This document shows, in pieces, positions 18,941-40,196 of a DNA stretch of 40,218 nt. The notes beneath the pieces were generated by a model. The model did not search any database, had not been told where the DNA came from, and saw only the letters and a list, made by a program, of their open reading frames with translations. The position numbers and the translations under genes are program-made. This DNA is from Selenomonadaceae bacterium (lineage in GTDB: Bacteria; Bacillota; Negativicutes; Selenomonadales; Selenomonadaceae). Each line of letters starts with the position of its first letter. Position 1 is the stretch's first letter. The DNA lies in NCBI GenBank assembly GCA_017470715.1, contig JAFUYE010000086.1:1-40218 (forward strand). The letters are read 5' to 3'.

Positions 18941-19710
18941 AGCTTGCAGCCGAAAAAATTTCCAAAGCCTACGATAAAAATTCTGTTCTCCGTCAAGTCA
19001 GCTTTGACGTTCGCGACGGGGAATTTTTTTCTATACTCGGCTCGTCCGGTTGCGGCAAGACGACTTTGTTGCAAATTTTAATCGGCTTGCTTGACGCGGA
19101 CGACGGAAAAATTTTCAAGGACGGCACCGACATTACGAATTTGGAACCTGCGCGGCGCGGCATGGGAATTGTCTTCCAAAATTACGCGCTGTTCGACAAC
19201 ATGACGGTTTTTAAAAATGTTTCTTACGCGTTGAAGTTTCACGGCGTCGACGATGATTCTGCACAAAAAAAATCAGCTCGCATGTTGGATATTGTCGGCT
19301 TGAAAAATTTTTCGTCGAAAATGCCTGCGGAACTTTCGGGCGGACAACAACAACGCGTTGCGATTGCCCGTGCACTTGCACTTGAGCCGGATATAATTTT
19401 GTTTGACGAACCGTTGAGCGCACTTGACGCCTCGACACGTTTGGATATTCGCCGCGAACTGAAAAATATTCAACGAACGCTCGGAACGACGATGATTTAC
19501 GTCACGCACGACCAAGAGGAAGCTTTTGCGCTGTCGGATAGGGTGATGATTTTAAATCGCGGCGTCGTCAGCCAAATCGGCTCGCCCGAAGAAATTATTT
19601 CGTCTCCCGCAAATGATTACGTTCAATCGTTCGTCGTCGACAATCTTCAAACAAAAATTGATTCGTTGCGCAGGTTTGAAAAGCAATGTGGAATGAGGAA
19701 TTTGAAATGA
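18925..19710 (+). CDS. ABC importer ATP-binding protein
   Basis: 261 residues with all ABC motifs: Walker A GSSGCGKTT, Q-loop FQNYALF, signature LSGGQQQRVAIARAL, Walker B IILFDEPLSALD, and H-loop VTHDQEEA. It belongs to the PotA/FbpC/PhnT-like group that pairs with fused or two-subunit permeases. It lacks the long C-terminal regulatory domain of PotA. The last codons (CGMRNLK) are read from a small AT-rich repeat inserted at the junction with the permease gene, so the natural C-terminus may be slightly shorter. Confidence 0.93.
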   Translation: MDVQLKLAAEKISKAYDKNSVLRQVSFDVRDGEFFSILGSSGCGKTTLLQILIGLLDADDGKIFKDGTDITNLEPARRGMGIVFQNYALFDNMTVFKNVSYALKFHGVDDDSAQKKSARMLDIVGLKNFSSKMPAELSGGQQQRVAIARALALEPDIILFDEPLSALDASTRLDIRRELKNIQRTLGTTMIYVTHDQEEAFALSDRVMILNRGVVSQIGSPEEIISSPANDYVQSFVVDNLQTKIDSLRRFEKQCGMRNLK

Positions 19711-19762
19711 GGAATGATAATCGCGTAACAATTCCTAATTCCAAATTCCTAATTCCTAATTG
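19687..19762. repeat. AT-rich dispersed repeat (ATTCCTAATT family), copy 1
   Basis: GAATGAGGAATTTGAAATGAG on the left and several ATTCCTAATT units on the right form an imperfect inverted repeat. The same set of words occurs at 36345-36424. Here it lies across the ATPase stop and permease start and contributes residues to both proteins. Confidence 0.7.
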
Positions 19763-21305
19763 TTTTCTTGTCACGGTGACGATAATTTTTTGCGTCGGAG
19801 TATTTTTGCCGCTCGGCTCGCTGTTCATGCGGATAACGCCCGAAAGTTTCTCGCAAGTCGTCAACTCCCCGCAATTTTCGGCGGCTGTGTGGAATTCGGT
19901 ATCGACTGCCTTTGTCGCCACGATAATTTCAATGATTCTCGGACTTGCGGCGGCTTTGAGTTTGGAGCGAACAAATCTGCGCGGGAAAAATTTTTTCGCG
20001 GTGATTTTCGGCGCGCCGATGTTAATCCCGTCGATTTCGCATTCGTTCGGACTTGTCGCGTTGTTTGGAGCGAACGGCTGGTTGACGAACATTTTCCGCC
20101 TCGACATAAATATTTACGGCACAATCGGGATAATCGCGGGCTCGGTGATGTATGCGTTCCCCGTCGCGTTTTTTATTTTCCTGAGCGTGTTGCGTTGCGA
20201 AGACGGCTCGCCATATCTTGCGGCTGAAGTTCTCGGCGTCCCGAAAATCCGTCGCTTTATCGATTTAACGTTGCCATACCTGCGGCGGACGATTATTTCG
20301 ACGTTCTTCGCGATTTTTTCGATGATTGTCACGGATTACGGCGTCCCGTTGATGATTGGCGGCAAAACGATAACGCTGTCGGTTTTGATGTACAACAAGG
20401 CGGTTTCGATGATGGATTACGCGTCGGGAAGTGTTTTGGGCGTGATTTTAATCGTGCCCGCGCTGATTGCGTTCGTTGCCGACATTTTGAACCCGCCGCC
20501 GAAACAAAATGTCTTTGCAAAAAATATTTCACTCGTCGAAAAAAATTCAAGCCATGTCGTTAAAATTTTTTGCGTAATGTTGAGCTTGTTAATCGTTGCA
20601 CCGCTGATAACTTTTTGCGTGATGACTTTTGCGACAAAATATCCCGTCGACATGAATTTTACGCTGTATCACGTCACGCGAACGATTCACCGGGGCGCAC
20701 TCGACAACTGGTTAAATTCGCTGATAATCGCGGTGGTATCGGCGATAATCGGAACAATTTTTTCGTTCGCGCTTGCATATTTTTCGACGCGGGTCAACGG
20801 TCTTGCGGCAAAAGTCGTTCACCTGCTGTCGATTTTGCCGATGACGATACCCGGTATCGCGTTGGGGCTCGGCTACGTAATTTTTTTCCACGACGCGCCG
20901 ATTTACGGGACATTGATAATTTTGACGGCGGTCAACGTCATGCATTTTTTTTCGTCGCCGTATTTGATGATGCGCAACACGTTGGAAAAAATTTCCGCGA
21001 ACGTTGAGGCAGTCGGCAAAGTTTTGGGCGTCCCGCGCAGATTCATAATCCGCGACGTGATTTTGCCGAAAGTTCGATTCACGCTGTGCGAAATGTTCGC
21101 GTATTTTTTCGTCAACGCAATGATGACGATTTCGGCGGTGAGTTATTTGGCTCCGCCCGCGCCGAAGCCGCTCGCGTTGATGATTACGCAATTTGAGGCG
21201 CAACGTTTGATGGAATCCGCCGCCGCAGTTTCAATCGTGATTTTGCTGACGAATTTGGCGTTGAAAATTTTGCTGACACGCCTTGAAAAGAAATTCGCCC
21301 GATAA
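19707..21305 (+). CDS. ABC importer permease, fused double-domain
   Basis: 532-residue inner-membrane protein with about 12 predicted spans. It contains two consecutive binding-protein-dependent permease domains, each with an EAA-type loop contacting the ATPase: AEVLGVPKIRRFIDLTLP (first half) and EAVGKVLGVPRRFIIRDVILP (second half). The architecture is that of ThiP/FbpB/PhnUV-like fused permeases. The first 20 residues (RNDNRVTIPNSKFLIPN) come from an inserted AT-rich repeat. ATG at 19707 overlaps the ATPase stop and has GAGG in front. The last 15 codons plus stop recur at 22552-22600 beyond a foreign cassette. Confidence 0.9.
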   Translation: MRNDNRVTIPNSKFLIPNCFLVTVTIIFCVGVFLPLGSLFMRITPESFSQVVNSPQFSAAVWNSVSTAFVATIISMILGLAAALSLERTNLRGKNFFAVIFGAPMLIPSISHSFGLVALFGANGWLTNIFRLDINIYGTIGIIAGSVMYAFPVAFFIFLSVLRCEDGSPYLAAEVLGVPKIRRFIDLTLPYLRRTIISTFFAIFSMIVTDYGVPLMIGGKTITLSVLMYNKAVSMMDYASGSVLGVILIVPALIAFVADILNPPPKQNVFAKNISLVEKNSSHVVKIFCVMLSLLIVAPLITFCVMTFATKYPVDMNFTLYHVTRTIHRGALDNWLNSLIIAVVSAIIGTIFSFALAYFSTRVNGLAAKVVHLLSILPMTIPGIALGLGYVIFFHDAPIYGTLIILTAVNVMHFFSSPYLMMRNTLEKISANVEAVGKVLGVPRRFIIRDVILPKVRFTLCEMFAYFFVNAMMTISAVSYLAPPAPKPLALMITQFEAQRLMESAAAVSIVILLTNLALKILLTRLEKKFAR

Positions 21306-21332
21306 TTTGAAATGTTGCGTCGTGAAAAATTT

Positions 21333-21785
21333 TTACCACTTGTACTCGAAAAAATCGTCGCGCTCAAGTGCCGGAATGAAAATTGCAATCCAACATAATT
21401 TTTTCGTATCCTCATCGTACTCAACCCAATAACCGTTAGTTGAGGTATAAATTTCATCCCAATCATCAAAAATAAGATTCGGGTCAATTTTCTGTGCGTC
21501 ATCAATCGTAGTGTCGAGATTTATTCCGTTGGGTAAGTTTCCGCTGAAAATTCCCTTCAAAACAATCTTAAAGAGCCTGTTTTTAGCAAAGAACAATTCC
21601 ATGACGTTATCGATTTCGACTATAATCCACGGAGGATCTTTAGGATTGTACCGATTTACATTTATTTCCTCGTTGTAAAGAACACCATACTCTTTGAGCA
21701 GTGTTTTAATTTCATCGGGCGAAGAATCGAGTTTGAATATCCCTGTGCCAACGTATGGCATAATTGACGTTGCTAAATCAATCAT
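21333..21785 (-). CDS. Putative immunity protein of the cassette
   Basis: 150 residues, acidic, without signal peptide or membrane span. No family is recognised. The sequence opens with MIDLATSIMPYVGTGIFKLD and ends DDFFEYKW, with aromatic and acidic clusters (DDWDEIYTSTNGYWVEYDEDTKK) of the kind seen in SMI1/KNR4-like and other polymorphic-toxin immunity proteins. It overlaps the upstream toxin-like gene by four bases (ATGA), which supports a toxin-immunity pairing. It is convergent with the permease gene, ending 27 bases from it. Function inferred from context only. Confidence 0.7.
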   Translation of the reverse strand: MIDLATSIMPYVGTGIFKLDSSPDEIKTLLKEYGVLYNEEINVNRYNPKDPPWIIVEIDNVMELFFAKNRLFKIVLKGIFSGNLPNGINLDTTIDDAQKIDPNLIFDDWDEIYTSTNGYWVEYDEDTKKLCWIAIFIPALERDDFFEYKW

Positions 21786-22216
21786 TCGCTATCCCTCTTG
21801 AAAATTAGACGCGCTTTTTCGGTTCCGTCTGTCCTGTATTGTTCGCGTGTGCCGTCGATAACCTTAATCAAGCCTTCATTCGACGTGCTGAGCTTTACAT
21901 AGGGCACATTGCCGTGATGTTTGCTTCCGTCGGGCGAAATTTGCACTTGGTCAATGTTGCGTTCTTTAGATGGATTGGTTATCTCGATTATCATAGCCGT
22001 TGAACCTTTATTTTGACGATTTGACGGACAAATACGTATTTCGTATCCGTTTTCCTTGAGCAGGTCGGCAATTTGTTCGACGGATTTGTTCATGAATTCT
22101 TCGCGGTGCGCGGCAATTCCTTCATAAGTCACGTGTCCGTTGTTGAAGAGCGGGGGAGCTGAGCCACCACCTTTGCCGTTTGTGCCGTGAAAATGTCCGC
22201 TGCCGGGCTTGCTCAT
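21782..22216 (-). CDS. Orphan polymorphic-toxin-like C-terminal module
   Basis: 144 residues. The N-terminus PGSGHFHGTNGKGGGSAPP is a Gly/Ser-rich linker of the SGHFHGT type that I know from the front of C-terminal toxin domains in Clostridia-type polymorphic toxins. The remainder (YEGIAAHREEFMNKSVEQIADLL, then IRICPSNRQNKGSTAMIIEI, QISPDGSKHHGN, REQYRTDGTEKARLIFKR) is a small alpha/beta domain of unknown activity. No delivery domain or signal is attached, so it resembles a toxin tip without its carrier. It overlaps the DUF4417-like remnant upstream and the putative immunity gene downstream, four bases each. Confidence 0.65.
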   Translation of the reverse strand: MSKPGSGHFHGTNGKGGGSAPPLFNNGHVTYEGIAAHREEFMNKSVEQIADLLKENGYEIRICPSNRQNKGSTAMIIEITNPSKERNIDQVQISPDGSKHHGNVPYVKLSTSNEGLIKVIDGTREQYRTDGTEKARLIFKRDSE

Positions 22217-22545
22217 GACGAAGCCTCCGCGAAAGCAAGGGCGCGTTCGCTTTGAAATTTGACAATCTTGACTTTTTGCCGTATGCTGTCAAAGCAAGGA
22301 AGATTGTCCGAGCCGTAAACTATGATTGTATGCGGTTGCAACACTTCAAGAAGTTTTGCAAAGCCGCTCTCGAACAATTCACGGTTTTCAGGTTTGCGCA
22401 ACCCGCTCGCGACCGTCCCGATTGAAACGATACTTTTCTGCGGTATGCCGTCAAAACAATATTGAAAAGTTTCTTCGGTGCCCCAACGAACGTTGTTAAT
22501 CACTTCGCCGCCGAATGTTCCGTACCAATAGCCGAAAGCTCTCAT
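22213..22545 (-). pseudogene. DUF4417-like protein, 5'-truncated
   Basis: 110 residues matching the C-terminal half of DUF4417 proteins found in phage and integrative-element regions. Conserved pieces are RAFGYW, INNVRWGTEETFQYCFDGIP, SIVSIGTVASG and HTIIVYGS. Family members are usually over 200 residues; here the N-terminal half is missing. Upstream of the ATG two more codons (YR) continue the family pattern, and then the sequence switches abruptly to the permease 3'-end repeat at about 22552. The truncation point therefore coincides with the cassette boundary. Confidence 0.7.
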
Positions 22546-22636
22546 TCGATAGGCGTTGAAAATTTTCCTGACGCGTCTTGAAAAGAAATTCGCACGCTGA
22601 ACAACTTGGATGCAACGTTACATTGCAAAAAATATT

Positions 22637-22664
22637 CCCTGTTCGATTGAGCGGGGATTTTTTT
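22637..22664 (+). terminator. Native terminator of the ABC importer operon
   Basis: CCCTGTTC (22637-22644), loop GATT, GAGCGGGG (22649-22656): eight pairs, two G-U, followed by ATTTTTTT. It lies 37 bases after the second permease stop (22600), as expected if copy 2 was the original gene end. Confidence 0.8.
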
Positions 22665-22685
22665 GCAGGAAATTTTATTCACTCG

Positions 22686-22714
22686 TTGAAAATTGCTTGC
22701 GTCGAAAGTATTTT
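22686..22714 (+). promoter_or_regulatory. Possible promoter of the secreted orphan gene
   Basis: TTGAAA (22686-22691), 17-base spacer, TATTTT (22709-22714). Moderate match; the gene's AAAGGAG site follows at 22751-22757. Confidence 0.42.
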
Positions 22715-22767
22715 ACGGAAAGTGAGGCTCGTAATTGCGATTTTTCGGCAGAAAGGAGTAACTTACC

Positions 22768-23319
22768 ATGAAAAATTTTGTTAGAGTGGCTTTGATGGCG
22801 ATTTTTGTCGTCGCATGCGTACTTTTCAGCGGCAATGAAAACGTTTGCAGTGCCATAGTCTTAACTGACGAATCTTCTACTCCAAAGGGGCGTCTTTATT
22901 CTGCTGGCGTTTTGGATATTTTCTTTCAATCAAACAAAACTATCGGTATCTCTATAAGCAAAGTCAATTCTATACTTAACGATTACCCGTCAGAGGATTA
23001 TTATTTTTACGGGATAGAAATTTGGCAACGAACAGATCAAAACCCGTCAAACATAAAATCTATCGTGATAATGTCAGAAATTGACAGTGTTGAAATTTCT
23101 ATAAACGATTCAGACCTAATAAACCGAAAAAAAGGATTAGATTTCGTTATCGACAGAATAATTTATCTCGACACGGGTAAAGTGAACCGCGTTATAAAAA
23201 GCGTTATGTCCAAGATGTTAATCCGAATAACGACGACAGGCGGCGTTGTTTATGACTTTTATCCTTCTGAAGAATACATTTCTGACGCGAAAAAGGTTGC
23301 GGACTGGGCGTCACGTTAA
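22768..23319 (+). CDS. Secreted protein of unknown function
   Basis: 183 residues with a signal peptide (MKNFVRVALMAIFVVACVLFSGNENVCSA; cleavage likely near residue 28). No domain is recognised. The mature part is beta-rich with repeated Ile/Ser/Asp patterns (TIGISISKVNSIL, IKSIVIMSEIDSVEISIND). It is more A/T-rich than its neighbours and uses ATA and AGA codons more freely, which suggests recent acquisition. It is flanked by terminators on both sides, so it is a single-gene unit. AAAGGAG 11 bases before the ATG. Confidence 0.78.
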   Translation: MKNFVRVALMAIFVVACVLFSGNENVCSAIVLTDESSTPKGRLYSAGVLDIFFQSNKTIGISISKVNSILNDYPSEDYYFYGIEIWQRTDQNPSNIKSIVIMSEIDSVEISINDSDLINRKKGLDFVIDRIIYLDTGKVNRVIKSVMSKMLIRITTTGGVVYDFYPSEEYISDAKKVADWASR

Positions 23320-23342
23320 AAAATCACTCATGAAACGAAAAA

Positions 23343-23375
23343 ACCGACGGGATTTTGTCTTGTCGGGGATTTTTT
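23343..23375 (+). terminator. Terminator of the secreted orphan gene
   Basis: CCGAC (23343-23347) pairs with GTCGG (23361-23365), followed by GGATTTTTTT. Short stem with a 13-base loop. Confidence 0.6.
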
Positions 23376-23590
23376 TATGATTTAGAGTCTCTGAGCTGAA
23401 AAATTTTGCCCAAAACAATTTCGTAACGATTTTTTTGATTCTGAACGTAAAATTTCTGTCGAAAATCAGTTCAAAGCGATTTTGAACGTTGAAACCCGAA
23501 AATTTTTGGCTATCGAGTAAAATCGAACCTTAAGGTTTGATGTAGCGAACCTCAAAAACCGTTCGAGTAATCGGGCGGTTATTTTTTTGC
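23376..23590 (+). other. Gene-free leader ending in a terminator hairpin
   Basis: No gene seen. The distal part contains AACCTTAAGGTT (23526-23537), a competing GGTT...AACC pairing (23534-23553 region) and the terminator AACCGTTCG-AGTAAT-CGGGCGGTT with T7 (23557-23588). These overlapping arms could form alternative structures. The region could equally be an unregulated spacer; no known riboswitch class is recognised. Confidence 0.4.
23557..23588 (+). terminator. Terminator hairpin upstream of the WbaP-like gene
   Basis: AACCGTTCG (23557-23565), loop AGTAAT, CGGGCGGTT (23572-23580): nine pairs with two G-U, then ATTTTTTT. Confidence 0.8.
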
Positions 23591-23615
23591 GCGAACTTCG
23601 GGCTTATGTTACAAT
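23587..23615 (+). promoter_or_regulatory. Promoter of the WbaP-like gene
   Basis: TTGCGC (23587-23592), 17-base spacer, TACAAT (23610-23615), partly overlapping the preceding T-run. The GAGG site at about 23633 precedes the ATG at 23645. Confidence 0.6.
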
Positions 23616-23644
23616 GTCCACAAAAATTTCACGAGGAACGAAAC

Positions 23645-25078
23645 ATGTCTGCAAAAAAAAATTCGACGACTTTCAGCGCGTTTGTGCCGCCGATTTTATT
23701 TTTACTGTTCGATTATGTCGGTGTCGTGCTGAGCGAACATTTGGCTTTTTGGTTGCGCGACCGAATGGATTTTTGGAACCGCGTCACGTACATTTATGAC
23801 GACGCGTACATTTACGGTTGGGTGCCGTTTTTGTTTTTGATTTTTTTGGGGCATTCGCGTTCGTATCGGCAGATGAAACCCGTCGTCGACACAATGCGCG
23901 ATATTTTTTTGTCGGTCTTTTACGGCTGGATTGCGTCAATAATTTTGATTTACTTCCTGAAAGCGTCGGGGCAAGCATCGCGACTTTTTATTTTGCTGCT
24001 GGGAATTTTCGTGCTGATTAACGTCTGTGTGATTCGTTATGCCGTGCTCAAATTTCTCAAGCGGAAAAATATTTTCTACGAACCGATAATTTTAATCGGC
24101 GCGGGACTCACGGCGGAAAAAGTCATCAAATTTTGGCGCGAAGATTTAGGTTATCGATATAAAGTCGTCGGATTGATTGACGATCACCCTGTTTCGGAAA
24201 CTTTGCCGAAAGAATTCCCGATACTCGGCGGCTTGAAAAATGCGCGAAGTTTGATTCGTGCCGCGAACGTTAAAACCGTCGTAATTGCCGCGCCCGGTCT
24301 CGACAAAGAAAAATTGCAGGAACTTATCGGCAAGATTCAACCGCACGTCAAAAAAATTTCGTTCGTGCCGGATTTAATCGGGACGCCGATGTCAAGCGTC
24401 GAACTGTCGTTGCTGTTCAGCGAAAAAATTTTGATGCTCAACCTGCGCAACAATCTGGCGAGCCGCTCAAACCGAATCATTAAGCGGACGTTCGATTTAA
24501 TCTGTACGATTTTCGGCGGGCTGATGATTTCGCCGATTTTGGTTATACTTGCCGTTGCCGTGGCGATTGACAATCGCGGACGTGTAATTTTCGCTCACAG
24601 ACGCGTCGGACGTGCCGGCAAAAAATTTCCGTGCTACAAATTTCAAACAATGCAACCGTGGTCGGACGAAAAGTTTAAGCAGTATCTTGCCGAAAATCCC
24701 GAAGCCAAACGCGAATGGGACGAAAGTTTTAAGTTGACGCATGACCCGCGTGTCACTAAGCTGGGAAATTTTTTGCGACGAACGAGTTTGGACGAGTTGC
24801 CGCAACTTTTGAACGTCCTGCGCGGCGAAATGAGTTTGGTCGGTCCGCGTCCGATTGTTCAGGCTGAAGTTTCCCGCTACGGCAAAAATATTCGCGAATA
24901 TTACATGGTTTTGCCGGGCATAACGGGCATGTGGCAAGTTTCCGGTCGAAGCGATACAACTTATCCTGAACGCGTGGCAATGGATACGTGGTACGTGCGC
25001 AACTGGTCGGTGTGGATTGATTTAATGTATCTGTTCAAAACCGTCAAAGCCGTCCTGCAGTCGAAAGGCGCGTATTGA
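23645..25078 (+). CDS. WbaP-like polyprenyl glycosylphosphotransferase
   Basis: 477 residues. Transfers a sugar-1-phosphate (typically galactose or glucose) from a UDP-sugar to undecaprenyl phosphate, starting O-antigen or exopolysaccharide synthesis at the inner membrane. Four to five N-terminal spans (about residues 10-130), a Rossmann-like CoA-binding-type domain (about 145-260; ILIGAGLTAEKVI), one further span, then the bacterial sugar-transferase domain (about 285-477): KRTFDLI, RRVGRAGKKFPCYKFQTM, RRTSLDELPQLLNVLRGEMSLVG and PGITGMWQVSGRS. ATG at 23645 is chosen because the in-frame ATG at 23606 lies within the promoter. It is monocistronic. Confidence 0.9.
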   Translation: MSAKKNSTTFSAFVPPILFLLFDYVGVVLSEHLAFWLRDRMDFWNRVTYIYDDAYIYGWVPFLFLIFLGHSRSYRQMKPVVDTMRDIFLSVFYGWIASIILIYFLKASGQASRLFILLLGIFVLINVCVIRYAVLKFLKRKNIFYEPIILIGAGLTAEKVIKFWREDLGYRYKVVGLIDDHPVSETLPKEFPILGGLKNARSLIRAANVKTVVIAAPGLDKEKLQELIGKIQPHVKKISFVPDLIGTPMSSVELSLLFSEKILMLNLRNNLASRSNRIIKRTFDLICTIFGGLMISPILVILAVAVAIDNRGRVIFAHRRVGRAGKKFPCYKFQTMQPWSDEKFKQYLAENPEAKREWDESFKLTHDPRVTKLGNFLRRTSLDELPQLLNVLRGEMSLVGPRPIVQAEVSRYGKNIREYYMVLPGITGMWQVSGRSDTTYPERVAMDTWYVRNWSVWIDLMYLFKTVKAVLQSKGAY

Positions 25079-28920: not shown

Positions 28921-29103
28921 TCAACCTTTGCTGACTTTGATTTTGTTTTGACCGTGTTCGACGGTGTAACGCTTGCCGCAACCGGGACAGGTGCCGTGTG
29001 TGCGCTGAGTGCTTGCCGTGTCGACGGTGTAGGAATTGAGTTTGCGCCCGCAATGCGGACAATTCACGCTTTTGGAAACTGCCAAATGAATCACTCCAAT
29101 CAC
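28921..29103 (-). CDS. Small zinc-ribbon protein
   Basis: 60 residues with two Cys pairs, CPHCG (about 19-23) and CPGCG (about 44-48), which form a zinc ribbon. The C-terminus is basic (GQNKIKVSKG). Such small ribbons often bind nucleic acid or act as protein-interaction adaptors. It overlaps the XRE regulator stop by four bases and precedes the glycine-zipper gene by six, placing it firmly in the operon. Confidence 0.78.
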   Translation of the reverse strand: MIGVIHLAVSKSVNCPHCGRKLNSYTVDTASTQRTHGTCPGCGKRYTVEHGQNKIKVSKG

Positions 29104-29486
29104 TTTTTGACGGAACTGTTTCCGCTACTCGAAAAAATTTTATCTGCGCGCTCGAATTGATCAATCATCTTGTCCATGTCGTCATTGAGCTGTTTAATGC
29201 CTTCGAAAGTTTCTTTCATGTCGCTCCAGAAATTTTTCAAGTCGGATTTATACACGCCGTCAATGTCAGTCAAAAGTGCAAGTTCCACATCCAAAGCGCG
29301 AGAAATTTTTATCAACATTGGCAACGAAACTGTTTTGTTTCCCGACGCGTTTTCTATCTGCGACAGATAATTTTTGTTGATGTCGAGTTTGTCGGCAAGT
29401 TCTGCCTGCGTCATATTGCGTAATTTGCGAAAACCGACAATGCGTGCGCCGATACAACGCAACTCTGCGCTAAAATCTTCTTTCAT
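29100..29486 (-). CDS. XRE-family transcriptional regulator
   Basis: 128 residues from the internal ATG at 29484-29486, which has a GGAGG ribosome binding site seven bases upstream. Residues about 11-70 form a Cro/C1-type helix-turn-helix (RIVGFRKLRNMTQAELADKLDINKNYLSQIENA...SLPMLIKISRALDVEL). The C-terminal half is acidic and probably a coiled coil (FWSDMKETFEGIKQLNDDMDKMIDQFERADKIF). It overlaps the zinc-ribbon gene and leads the operon down to the Sel1 gene, so it likely controls it. Confidence 0.85.
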   Translation of the reverse strand: MKEDFSAELRCIGARIVGFRKLRNMTQAELADKLDINKNYLSQIENASGNKTVSLPMLIKISRALDVELALLTDIDGVYKSDLKNFWSDMKETFEGIKQLNDDMDKMIDQFERADKIFSSSGNSSVKK

Positions 29487-30026
29487 GTGTTGACCTCCCG
29501 AACGTTTTTTTGTCAGCAATTCTATCGGATAATGCCGCCGCTGTCGATTAACCAACAGCGTGATTATTACAGGTGCGACCGAATAGAGCCACAATCTTTG
29601 CAAGCGCAGTGTACGATAAATTTTTCTTGCCAATATCTCCGCCAGCAGATTCTTGTAGAATGTCTTGCTACGTTTGGTTAATGAAAAATTTTCTTCTGTG
29701 CGCGATGCCGACGTTTTTGCAGGCGACTTCGAGACAAAGTCTGTGTAAGTGCTTCCGCCGTCTGTGAAATTGTAACCGTTCGGGTATTTGGTGCCGCGTG
29801 AAAGAATGAAATGTTTTTCCCAGTAGTCAAGTTCTTGTTGATTCGCACACTCTTTCAAGATGGCGATAACAAAATTTTCCGCGCCGTGAGCACGAATTGA
29901 TTTGCCGATATACGACGTGCCGTGCAAATGTTCATTGAAACGCACTTTGACCGAACGCCTCGTCTGCCCGACGTATTCTTCGTCGTTCGTGCCGTCGATT
30001 AGCAGATAGATGACACCGAATGCCAT
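29100..30026 (-). CDS. Continuous GIY-YIG / XRE reading frame (308 codons)
   Basis: The frame opens with a GIY-YIG nuclease domain (about residues 3-95): GVIYLLIDG, YVGQT, the conserved Arg in VRFNEH, and a Glu in QQELDYWEKHF. A Ser/Thr/Lys tail follows. From about residue 130 to 179 the translation is low-quality and then enters the XRE gene without a stop. In another frame, just after KNLLAE, the DNA reads IGKKNLSYTALAKIV, the small helix-turn-helix tail expected in this nuclease family. So the tail was broken by an extra AT near 29632-29636 and the fusion with XRE is probably accidental. AAGGAG precedes the ATG. Confidence 0.65.
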   Translation of the reverse strand: MAFGVIYLLIDGTNDEEYVGQTRRSVKVRFNEHLHGTSYIGKSIRAHGAENFVIAILKECANQQELDYWEKHFILSRGTKYPNGYNFTDGGSTYTDFVSKSPAKTSASRTEENFSLTKRSKTFYKNLLAEILARKIYRTLRLQRLWLYSVAPVIITLLVNRQRRHYPIELLTKKRSGGQHMKEDFSAELRCIGARIVGFRKLRNMTQAELADKLDINKNYLSQIENASGNKTVSLPMLIKISRALDVELALLTDIDGVYKSDLKNFWSDMKETFEGIKQLNDDMDKMIDQFERADKIFSSSGNSSVKK

Positions 30027-39870: not shown

Positions 39871-39889
39871 GAAATTACGCATAAAAAAT

Positions 39890-39927
39890 CCCGCCACTTA
39901 ATCAAGCGACGGGAAATTTTTTTGACG
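39890..39927 (-). terminator. Terminator of the SufB-like gene, copy 1
   Basis: On the minus strand CCCGTCGCTTGATTAAGTGGCGGG folds into a ten-pair stem (two G-U) with a four-base loop, followed by ATTTTTT. On the plus strand two of those pairs are lost, so it works best for leftward transcription. Repeated at 40047-40070 and again from 40204. Confidence 0.8.
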
Positions 39928-39928
39928 T

Positions 39929-40039
39929 TTATAATTGTCCTTCAAGTTCCAAATTAATCAGGTTGTTCATTTCGACGGCGTACTCAAGCGGGCAACGTGA
40001 CGTTGCATCCAATTGGAGCAATCCGCAACGTTTTCGCAT
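39929..40039 (-). pseudogene. SufB-like C-terminal fragment, unit 1
   Basis: Minus-strand frame of 36 codons ending LDATSRCPLEYAVEMNNLIN and LELEGQL-stop. The pattern PLEYAVEMN.LI.L..EG matches the C-terminus of the Fe-S scaffold protein SufB as I know it. An ATG opens the frame, but it comes directly out of the previous unit's terminator T-run and has no ribosome binding site, so independent translation is unlikely. Best read as a duplicated gene 3' end. Confidence 0.6.
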
Positions 40040-40085
40040 AAAAAATCCCGCCACTTAATCAAGCGACGGGAAATTTTTTTGACGT

Positions 40086-40196
40086 TTATAATTGTCCTTC
40101 AAGTTCAAGATTAATCAGGTTGTTCATTTCGACGGCGTACTCAAGCGGGCAACGTGACGTTGCATCCAATTGGAGCAATCCGCAACGTTTTCGCAT
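40086..40196 (-). pseudogene. SufB-like C-terminal fragment, unit 2
   Basis: Same 36-codon frame as unit 1, with an identical protein; one Leu codon differs. Upstream (to the right) comes a further terminator copy, so this is also a fragment; the complete gene, if present, lies beyond the window. Confidence 0.6.

What the first reader, a model, noticed from the sequence alone, without database searches (positions are those of the whole stretch)
21257..22600. Foreign cassette whose insertion duplicated the 3' end of the host gene and kept it functional
Seen: the final 15 codons plus stop of the ABC permease occur twice (21257-21305 and 22552-22600), and five of six base differences are silent. 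The operon's terminator lies after copy 2. The inserted 1.2 kb encodes a toxin-like module, a putative immunity protein and a DUF4417 remnant cut exactly at the junction. Inference: the incoming DNA supplied a replacement gene end from a related, functional permease gene, as elements targeting gene 3' ends do, but no integrase or transposase is visible. Either a non-autonomous element or homology-facilitated capture during DNA uptake could explain it.
Basis: partly seen in the sequence, partly recalled or inferred. Interest (0 to 1): 0.8.

Follow-up and report, generated by a model that had tools for sequence, protein, structure and literature searches.

The report
Hairpin repeat that duplicates gene ends
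The doubled gene end beside this small gene cassette is one case of a pattern seen across a rumen bacterial genus: a short hairpin repeat that often sits between two copies of a neighbouring gene's end, whose differences mostly leave the protein unchanged.

Summary
The repeat is real: 45 nt, 91% identical, with no third comparable copy in the draft genome; five of six differences are silent. Permease loci without the cassette exist (G016, G054, G021). That the cassette brought the gene end is not supported: in G078 the order is permease end A, a hairpin repeat (core TTGGATGCAACGTCACGTTGC), permease end B, then the cassette. The window is permuted: permease end, cassette cut inside its DUF4417 gene, permease end, the same hairpin with two changes. 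The hairpin is dispersed: its 19-nt core is in 38 of 66 same-genus genomes, up to 107 copies, never in the backwards control. In 42 of 106 sites a strong flanking repeat starts exactly at the hairpin's end; 3 of 452 random points have one within 3 nt. Coding copies differ by 44 silent to 10 amino-acid codons, 24% silent expected. A second case lies at 39875-40169. Clostridia show it too (8 of 33 sites; control 1 of 156). Reverse transcriptase and RAYT genes do not track it. The enzyme and the origin of the silent divergence are unknown.

The parts
19686..21305 (+). ABC permease (two BPD_transp_1 stretches; nearest NCBIfam model PhnU2, below its cut-off)
   Evidence: DNA matches at 87-95% in 5 of the 65 other same-genus genomes
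21257..21305 (+). gene-end copy 1 (the end of the permease frame); copy 1 with its 3' flank and the cassette aligns to copy B, its flank and the cassette of G078
21333..21785 (-).
   Evidence: also in G078
21782..22216 (-).
   Evidence: also in G078
22213..22545 (-). C-terminal half of a DUF4417 gene, cut at the junction; the open frame of G078 continues further
   Evidence: (PF14386, 91-182 of 183); the G078 extension was not tested against Pfam (one search failed)
22555..22567 (+). junction homology GTTGAAAATTTTC, present in the permease end and, with one change, in the DUF4417 gene of G078 (GTTGTAAATTTTC)
   Evidence: the alignment to G078 ends at 22567
22552..22600 (+). gene-end copy 2, directly joined to the hairpin repeat; copy A of G078 and the G016 end are joined to it through a longer tail
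22606..22626 (+). right end of the dispersed hairpin repeat, TTGGATGCAACGTTACATTGC (two changes from the common form)
22768..23319 (+). 183-aa ORF with a signal-peptide-like start (by eye), in a second insert absent from G016 and replaced by other DNA in G078
23606..25078 (+). WbaP-type sugar transferase, which closely follows the permease in G054, G016 and G021
40032..40148 (-). second doubled gene end in the window, upstream copy (PLEYAVEMNNLINLELEGQL*, then terminator)
39875..39991 (-). same gene end, downstream copy, same protein, 97.4% DNA identity, one Leu codon changed CTT/TTG
40149..40169 (-). hairpin repeat end TTGGATGCAACGTCACGTTGC
39992..40012 (-). hairpin repeat end TTGGATGCAACGTCACGTTGC, between the two gene-end copies

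Best explanation
The gene-end repeat is the footprint of a small dispersed element (E): about 64 or about 100 bp in several relatives, with a variable middle and a fixed right end, GGAT plus the hairpin GCAACGTCACGTTGC. E goes in next to genes and leaves the order X-E-X', where X' begins exactly at E's right end and repeats 13-157 bp of the sequence to E's left, often the last codons and stop of a gene. Most likely an unidentified enzyme joins E's right end before a C or T inside or near the gene end, with a long target duplication, so the gene keeps a full end (X) and the old end is stranded (X'). Recombination with related strains later exchanges the gene-attached copy, so X and X' differ mainly at silent sites. 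At this permease E went in before or around the split of G016, G078 and the window strain (permease, A, E, B). In the window strain a tandem rearrangement then joined the DUF4417 gene of the neighbouring cassette to the permease end at GTTGnAAATTTTC, and the first A-E unit was lost, giving permease end, cassette, permease end, E. Shown: both copies, E, the G078 order, loci without the cassette, genome-wide recurrence, exact right boundary, silent bias. Inferred: transposition as the cause, the order of events in the window, later exchange of X, and the missing enzyme.
For: G078: permease end A (319-395), E, end B (440-516, 89.6% to A), then a cassette 88% identical to the window's. 19-mer core in 38 of 66 genomes, backwards control 0; own genome 33 exact 13-mer cores, backwards control 1 with one mismatch allowed. 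X' starts exactly at E's end with a strong repeat in 42 of 106 sites; within 3 nt at 3 of 452 random points. 74 of 158 sites and 21 of 51 sites in G016 and G078 carry the repeat. First base of X' is C in 49, T in 10, A in 1 of 60. In 15 of 28 sites with a recognisable left end, X ends within 8 nt of it. Silent bias 44:10 over 20 sites, 0 of 5000 neutral simulations as high. Orthologs without E at the murB-like and other sites.
Against: 84 of 158 sites show no repeat. 13 of 28 have more than 8 nt of unduplicated sequence between X and E, which a clean target duplication does not predict. Where orthologs decide, the gene-attached X is the changed copy more often (12 against 5, 7 undecided), so later exchange must be added. 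Neither RT nor RAYT tracks E, and the 25 largest groups of recurrent neighbouring proteins show no transposase by eye. The permuted order in the window needs several unseen steps; an assembly error in this draft genome cannot be excluded. Sites in one tandem array are not independent.
Confidence: 0.5

Rival explanations
1. Incoming-end model (closest to the first reader): DNA from another strain carrying its own gene end, its own untranslated region and E pairs with the resident gene on the left by homologous recombination, while E's right end is joined to a point inside the resident gene end. X is the donor's end; X' is the resident's.
For: Silent bias 44:10; X is the changed copy 12 to 5; the left part of X is often identical to X' and the part next to E diverged (first 106 of 152 nt identical in L400, first 43 of 74 in G078); 13 of 28 sites carry unduplicated sequence between X and E, some with ribosome-binding-site-like stretches by eye; one gene end is hit in G016, G000 and G078 with two different joining points.
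Against: 15 of 28 sites have X ending within 8 nt of E. At the murB-like site the Lys codon of X is in none of the 28 loci read, out of 61 genomes with a match, so no donor lineage is visible. It does not explain how E first reached dozens of different genes.
Confidence: 0.33
2. The cassette itself is a mobile unit that inserted at the permease end and carried the replacement end.
For: The cassette lies exactly between the two ends in the window; it is absent from the fetched stretch at four of the five other permease loci.
Against: In G078 the ends flank E and the cassette lies outside. The right junction is inside DUF4417, whose frame continues further in G078. None of the three ORFs is a recombinase.
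Confidence: 0.1
3. Ordinary unequal recombination and slippage between chance repeats; the hairpin is only a common terminator in this genus.
For: E ends in a hairpin, and in G016 and Propionigenium it is followed by a T run; tandem arrays are common.
Against: The exact coincidence of the repeat's start with E's right end (42 sites) and the preference for C or T there (59 of 60).
Confidence: 0.07

Closest known systems
REP elements / REPINs mobilised by RAYT (IS200/IS605-type HUH transposase)
   Same: short extragenic hairpins in tens of copies, mostly near gene ends, no coding capacity
   Different: no GTAG tag; RAYT genes not found in the window's genome or four other element-rich genomes; long flanking duplications
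CGTC-tagged palindromic repeats (Di Nocera 2013, PMC3733652; passages read)
   Same: short palindromic families without a dedicated transposase, mainly downstream of genes
   Different: their CGTC tag is terminal; here CGTC lies in the hairpin. The main text has 0 occurrences of 'Firmicutes' and of 'duplication'
MITEs
   Same: non-autonomous, dispersed, near genes
   Different: no terminal inverted repeats seen by eye; duplications of 13-157 bp instead of a short fixed length (MITE definition recalled)
Integrative elements that target gene 3' ends and rebuild them (recalled)
   Same: end result: gene with a new end, old end stranded, both in frame
   Different: no integrase in the insert, no single target gene, element of only about 50-100 bp
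Non-LTR retroelements such as SINEs (recalled)
   Same: fixed 3' end, flanking duplications of variable length
   Different: no RT match in several element-rich genomes

Membership tests
REP/RAYT | partner RAYT (PF01797) in the genome | tested here: not met
   6 of 66 genomes, not the window's own, G010, G054, G061 or G068, which carry 33-107 copies; of the six only G014 carries E (19 copies)
REP/RAYT | GTAG-type tag before the hairpin | tested here: not met
   tag in 30 aligned copies is GGAT, but copies were chosen by the exact 19-mer
CGTC repeats | terminal CGTC outside the stem | tested here: not met
   CGTC lies inside GCAACGTCACGTTGC (definition)
MITE | terminal inverted repeats | tested here: not met
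   left ends GCTAG or CGCGG, right end CACGTTGC, compared by eye only
MITE | short target duplication of fixed length | tested here: not met
   13-157 bp
RT-driven retroelement | reverse transcriptase (PF00078) in element-rich genomes | tested here: not met
   none at E 1e-5 in G010, G054, G061, G068; but the window's own genome has 2 matches and G022 and G043 one each; drafts are incomplete
3'-end-targeting integrative element | site-specific integrase within the element | tested here: not met
   three ORFs, none a recombinase
Integron attC site | core boxes and an integron integrase | not tested
   considered from memory only
Toxin-immunity module | recognisable toxin and immunity domains | tested here: inconclusive
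   no significant family or PDB match; layout only

The most novel reading that the evidence does not exclude
A class of very small bacterial mobile elements, in Selenomonadaceae and Clostridia, defined by a 19-nt terminal hairpin and mobilised by an unidentified enzyme, that inserts at gene ends with long duplications of variable length. Hosts survive because each insertion keeps or supplies a working gene end; over time this leaves strings of stranded, silently recoded gene ends.
Probability: 0.45. Interest if true: 0.8.

Novelty: new variant of a known kind. Interest (0 to 1): 0.62.

Why it matters
If real, it is a dispersed bacterial repeat family that rewrites gene ends with little effect on protein sequence, with a precise boundary signature that can be searched for. 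It would make the mobility of transposase-less palindromic repeats, left open by Di Nocera 2013 (passages), testable, and it warns that cassettes next to doubled gene ends need not be the inserted unit.

Tried and rejected
Reverse transcriptase as driver: PF00078 in 21 of 66 genomes, no relation to copy number by eye. RAYT: 6 of 66. Rfam: two matches in 8 loci, both below the gathering score (E 0.14 and 0.53). Autonomous partner: of the recurrent proteins within 2.5 kb of 329 sites only the 25 largest groups were listed, named by eye; they look like ABC transporters, metabolic genes and antisense frames, except one GIY-YIG-like group at 5 sites in 3 loci (one member and the window protein 29100-30026 confirmed as GIY-YIG plus helix-turn-helix). 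Whether it tracks E could not be tested, the genome searches being spent. Virus-borne element: 33 viral stretches hold the 19-mer but 0 of 37 sites show the repeat (control 2 of 198), and by eye many sit before gene starts on the other strand. Toxin relatives in viral contigs: none. Other or unassigned phyla: 0 of 13 sites show the repeat. An earlier silent/non-silent count gave 35:19 over 27 sites with some wrong frames; one search required a stop inside X and dropped tandem arrays, gene starts and sites without such a frame. In one search, 4 of the 7 undecided positions are from one site (L053) whose query found no orthologs. Site sets are not random: regions for one search were picked partly because they held clusters, and loci come from a capped scan (115 stretches, 80 listed). 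No held paper contains the string CAACGTCACGTTGC. Novelty rests: listings, plus passages of PMC3733652 and PMC9585023. The gene names murB and livF are from recall.

Full report
Check of the observation. The two copies exist at the stated coordinates, 45 nt at 91% identity, and no third place in the 2.9 Mb draft genome comes near (E 1.4e-11 against 0.006 for the next). Five of six differences are silent, the sixth is Leu to Phe. Between them lie three minus-strand ORFs. The one at the junction is the C-terminal half of DUF4417. The other two have no significant family or PDB match, so 'toxin' and 'immunity' stay a guess from layout.

Loci without the cassette. Only 6 of 66 same-genus genomes, the window's included, carry the permease. 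In G054 the stop is followed about 30 nt later by the upstream region of the sugar-transferase gene. In G021 the end runs into another repeat and then the same gene. In G016 it is followed by a 32-nt stretch, 90.6% identical to the one after copy 2 of the window, with GCTGAACAAA-TTGGATGCAACGTCACGTTGC at its core, and then by the sugar-transferase region. So G054 and G021 lack both cassette and hairpin, while G016 has the hairpin but no cassette. G068 has other DNA downstream and no cassette in the 10 kb fetched. Against G016 the window has two inserts: the cassette and, at 22627-23581, a stretch with a 183-aa gene.

G078 changes the picture. It carries the same cassette (88% over 1348 bp) but in another order: permease end A, a tail of 47 nt ending in TTGGATGCAACGTCACGTTGC, permease end B, then the cassette. 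A and B encode the same last 20 residues and stop with five codons changed, all silent. Window copy 1, its flank and the cassette align without a break to B, its flank and the cassette (21238-22567 to L049 440-1780), and window copy 2 sits on the hairpin as A does. The window is therefore a permuted form. Its right cassette junction lies inside DUF4417, where the frame of G078 continues, at GTTGnAAATTTTC shared with the permease end. A tandem duplication at that homology followed by loss of the first A-E unit explains it; this order of events is inferred.

The hairpin is a dispersed repeat. The 13-mer TTGGATGCAACGT occurs 33 times exactly in the window's genome; the backwards control gave 1 match even with one mismatch allowed. 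The 19-mer GGATGCAACGTCACGTTGC is in 38 of 66 genomes, up to 107 copies, and 0 in the backwards control. Titles of related contigs point to Quinella or near relatives in the rumen. Among copies with a CGCGG left end, 112 distinct ones run 62-68 nt; longer ones begin further left with GCTAG. The middle is variable.

Boundary signature. Of 106 distinct sites 53 had a strong flanking repeat (score 40 or more), and in 42 of these the downstream copy began exactly at the end of CACGTTGC; of 452 random points 8 had a strong repeat, 3 of them within 3 nt. In a larger set, 74 of 158 sites qualify at score 34 within 2 nt, 36 single and 38 in tandem arrays, and 84 do not. In G016 and G078, 21 of 51 examined sites qualify, out of 72 copies. 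The first repeated base is C in 49, T in 10 and A in 1 of 60. In 28 sites with a recognisable left end, X ends within 8 nt of it in 15; in 13 there is extra unduplicated sequence. Of 205 sites, 149 lie between two called ORFs, and in 99 of these the left gene points at the element; 55 fell inside a called ORF, which may be spurious, and one was unclassified.

Coding copies. Over 20 sites with a stop codon inside X, 16 of which differ, there are 44 silent and 10 amino-acid-changing codons; random change gives 24% silent, and 0 of 5000 simulations reached the observed 81%. So the two copies diverged mainly as working gene ends. Where orthologs decide, the gene-attached copy is the changed one at 12 positions and the stranded one at 5, with 7 undecided. 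At the murB-like site (name from recall) the stranded copy has the common Gly-Glu-Glu end, while the gene-attached copy ends Gly-Glu-Lys, which none of the 28 loci read shows; one of those 28 is the window strain's own stranded copy, and 61 genomes had a match. This argues against simple decay of the stranded copy. It fits either later exchange of the attached end with other strains or arrival of the end together with the element; I put these at 0.5 and 0.33.

Spread. The 19-mer is also found in Clostridia, Fusobacteriaceae, Verrucomicrobia, Planctomycetes and viral contigs; by my arithmetic about two chance hits are expected in the 257 Gb genome collection. Grouped by record title, the flanking repeat is seen in 13 of 36 Selenomonadales and 8 of 33 Clostridia sites (controls 1 of 190 and 1 of 156), but in 0 of 13 other or unassigned sites and 0 of 37 viral sites (controls 0 of 66 and 2 of 198). 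So the gene-end signature is documented here for Selenomonadales and Clostridia only.

What drives it is unknown. No reverse transcriptase match is found in four element-rich genomes, though the window's own has two; RAYT genes are absent from the window's genome and those four; no Rfam family reaches its cut-off. Among the 25 largest groups of recurrent neighbouring proteins (329 sites) none looks like a transposase; one, at 5 sites in 3 loci, is a GIY-YIG nuclease with a helix-turn-helix. A member of that family also lies in the window at 29100-30026. It is a lead only, untested for correlation. Draft genomes may lack genes.

Verdict. The unit responsible is most likely the small hairpin element, and the cassette is neighbouring DNA caught by a later rearrangement.

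Noticed in passing
window 39875-40169, minus strand: A second doubled gene end (PLEYAVEMNNLINLELEGQL* twice, with terminator) around the same hairpin repeat; the only coding difference is a silent Leu codon.
   Followed up: yes
window 29100-30026, minus strand; L426 2239-3018; L055; L444: GIY-YIG nuclease domain joined to a helix-turn-helix; relatives lie near the hairpin element at 5 sites in 3 loci. A possible driver, not tested.
   Followed up: partly
window 22637-22675 and 23552-23598: Two terminator-like stretches of similar sequence flank the 183-aa gene insert; might be another flanking duplication or just a common terminator type.
   Followed up: no
L040 (G021), permease end: The permease reading frame runs into another hairpin-forming sequence (CGTTACTTTTCTTTGGCGGCAAAGAAAAGTAAC), giving a different protein end.
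   Followed up: no
L050 (own genome): Four element units of 88 bp in tandem with five gene-end copies that vary only at two silent positions, while the element part is unchanged.
   Followed up: partly
L357-L389 (viral contigs): By eye, the reverse complement of the 19-mer lies just upstream of ribosome-binding sites and start codons in many viral contigs, without flanking repeats; perhaps a regulatory palindrome.
   Followed up: partly
L257, L266, L277 (Propionigenium maris): A different AT-rich stretch of about 75 nt, similar among these loci by eye, ends in the same 19-mer followed by a T run.
   Followed up: no
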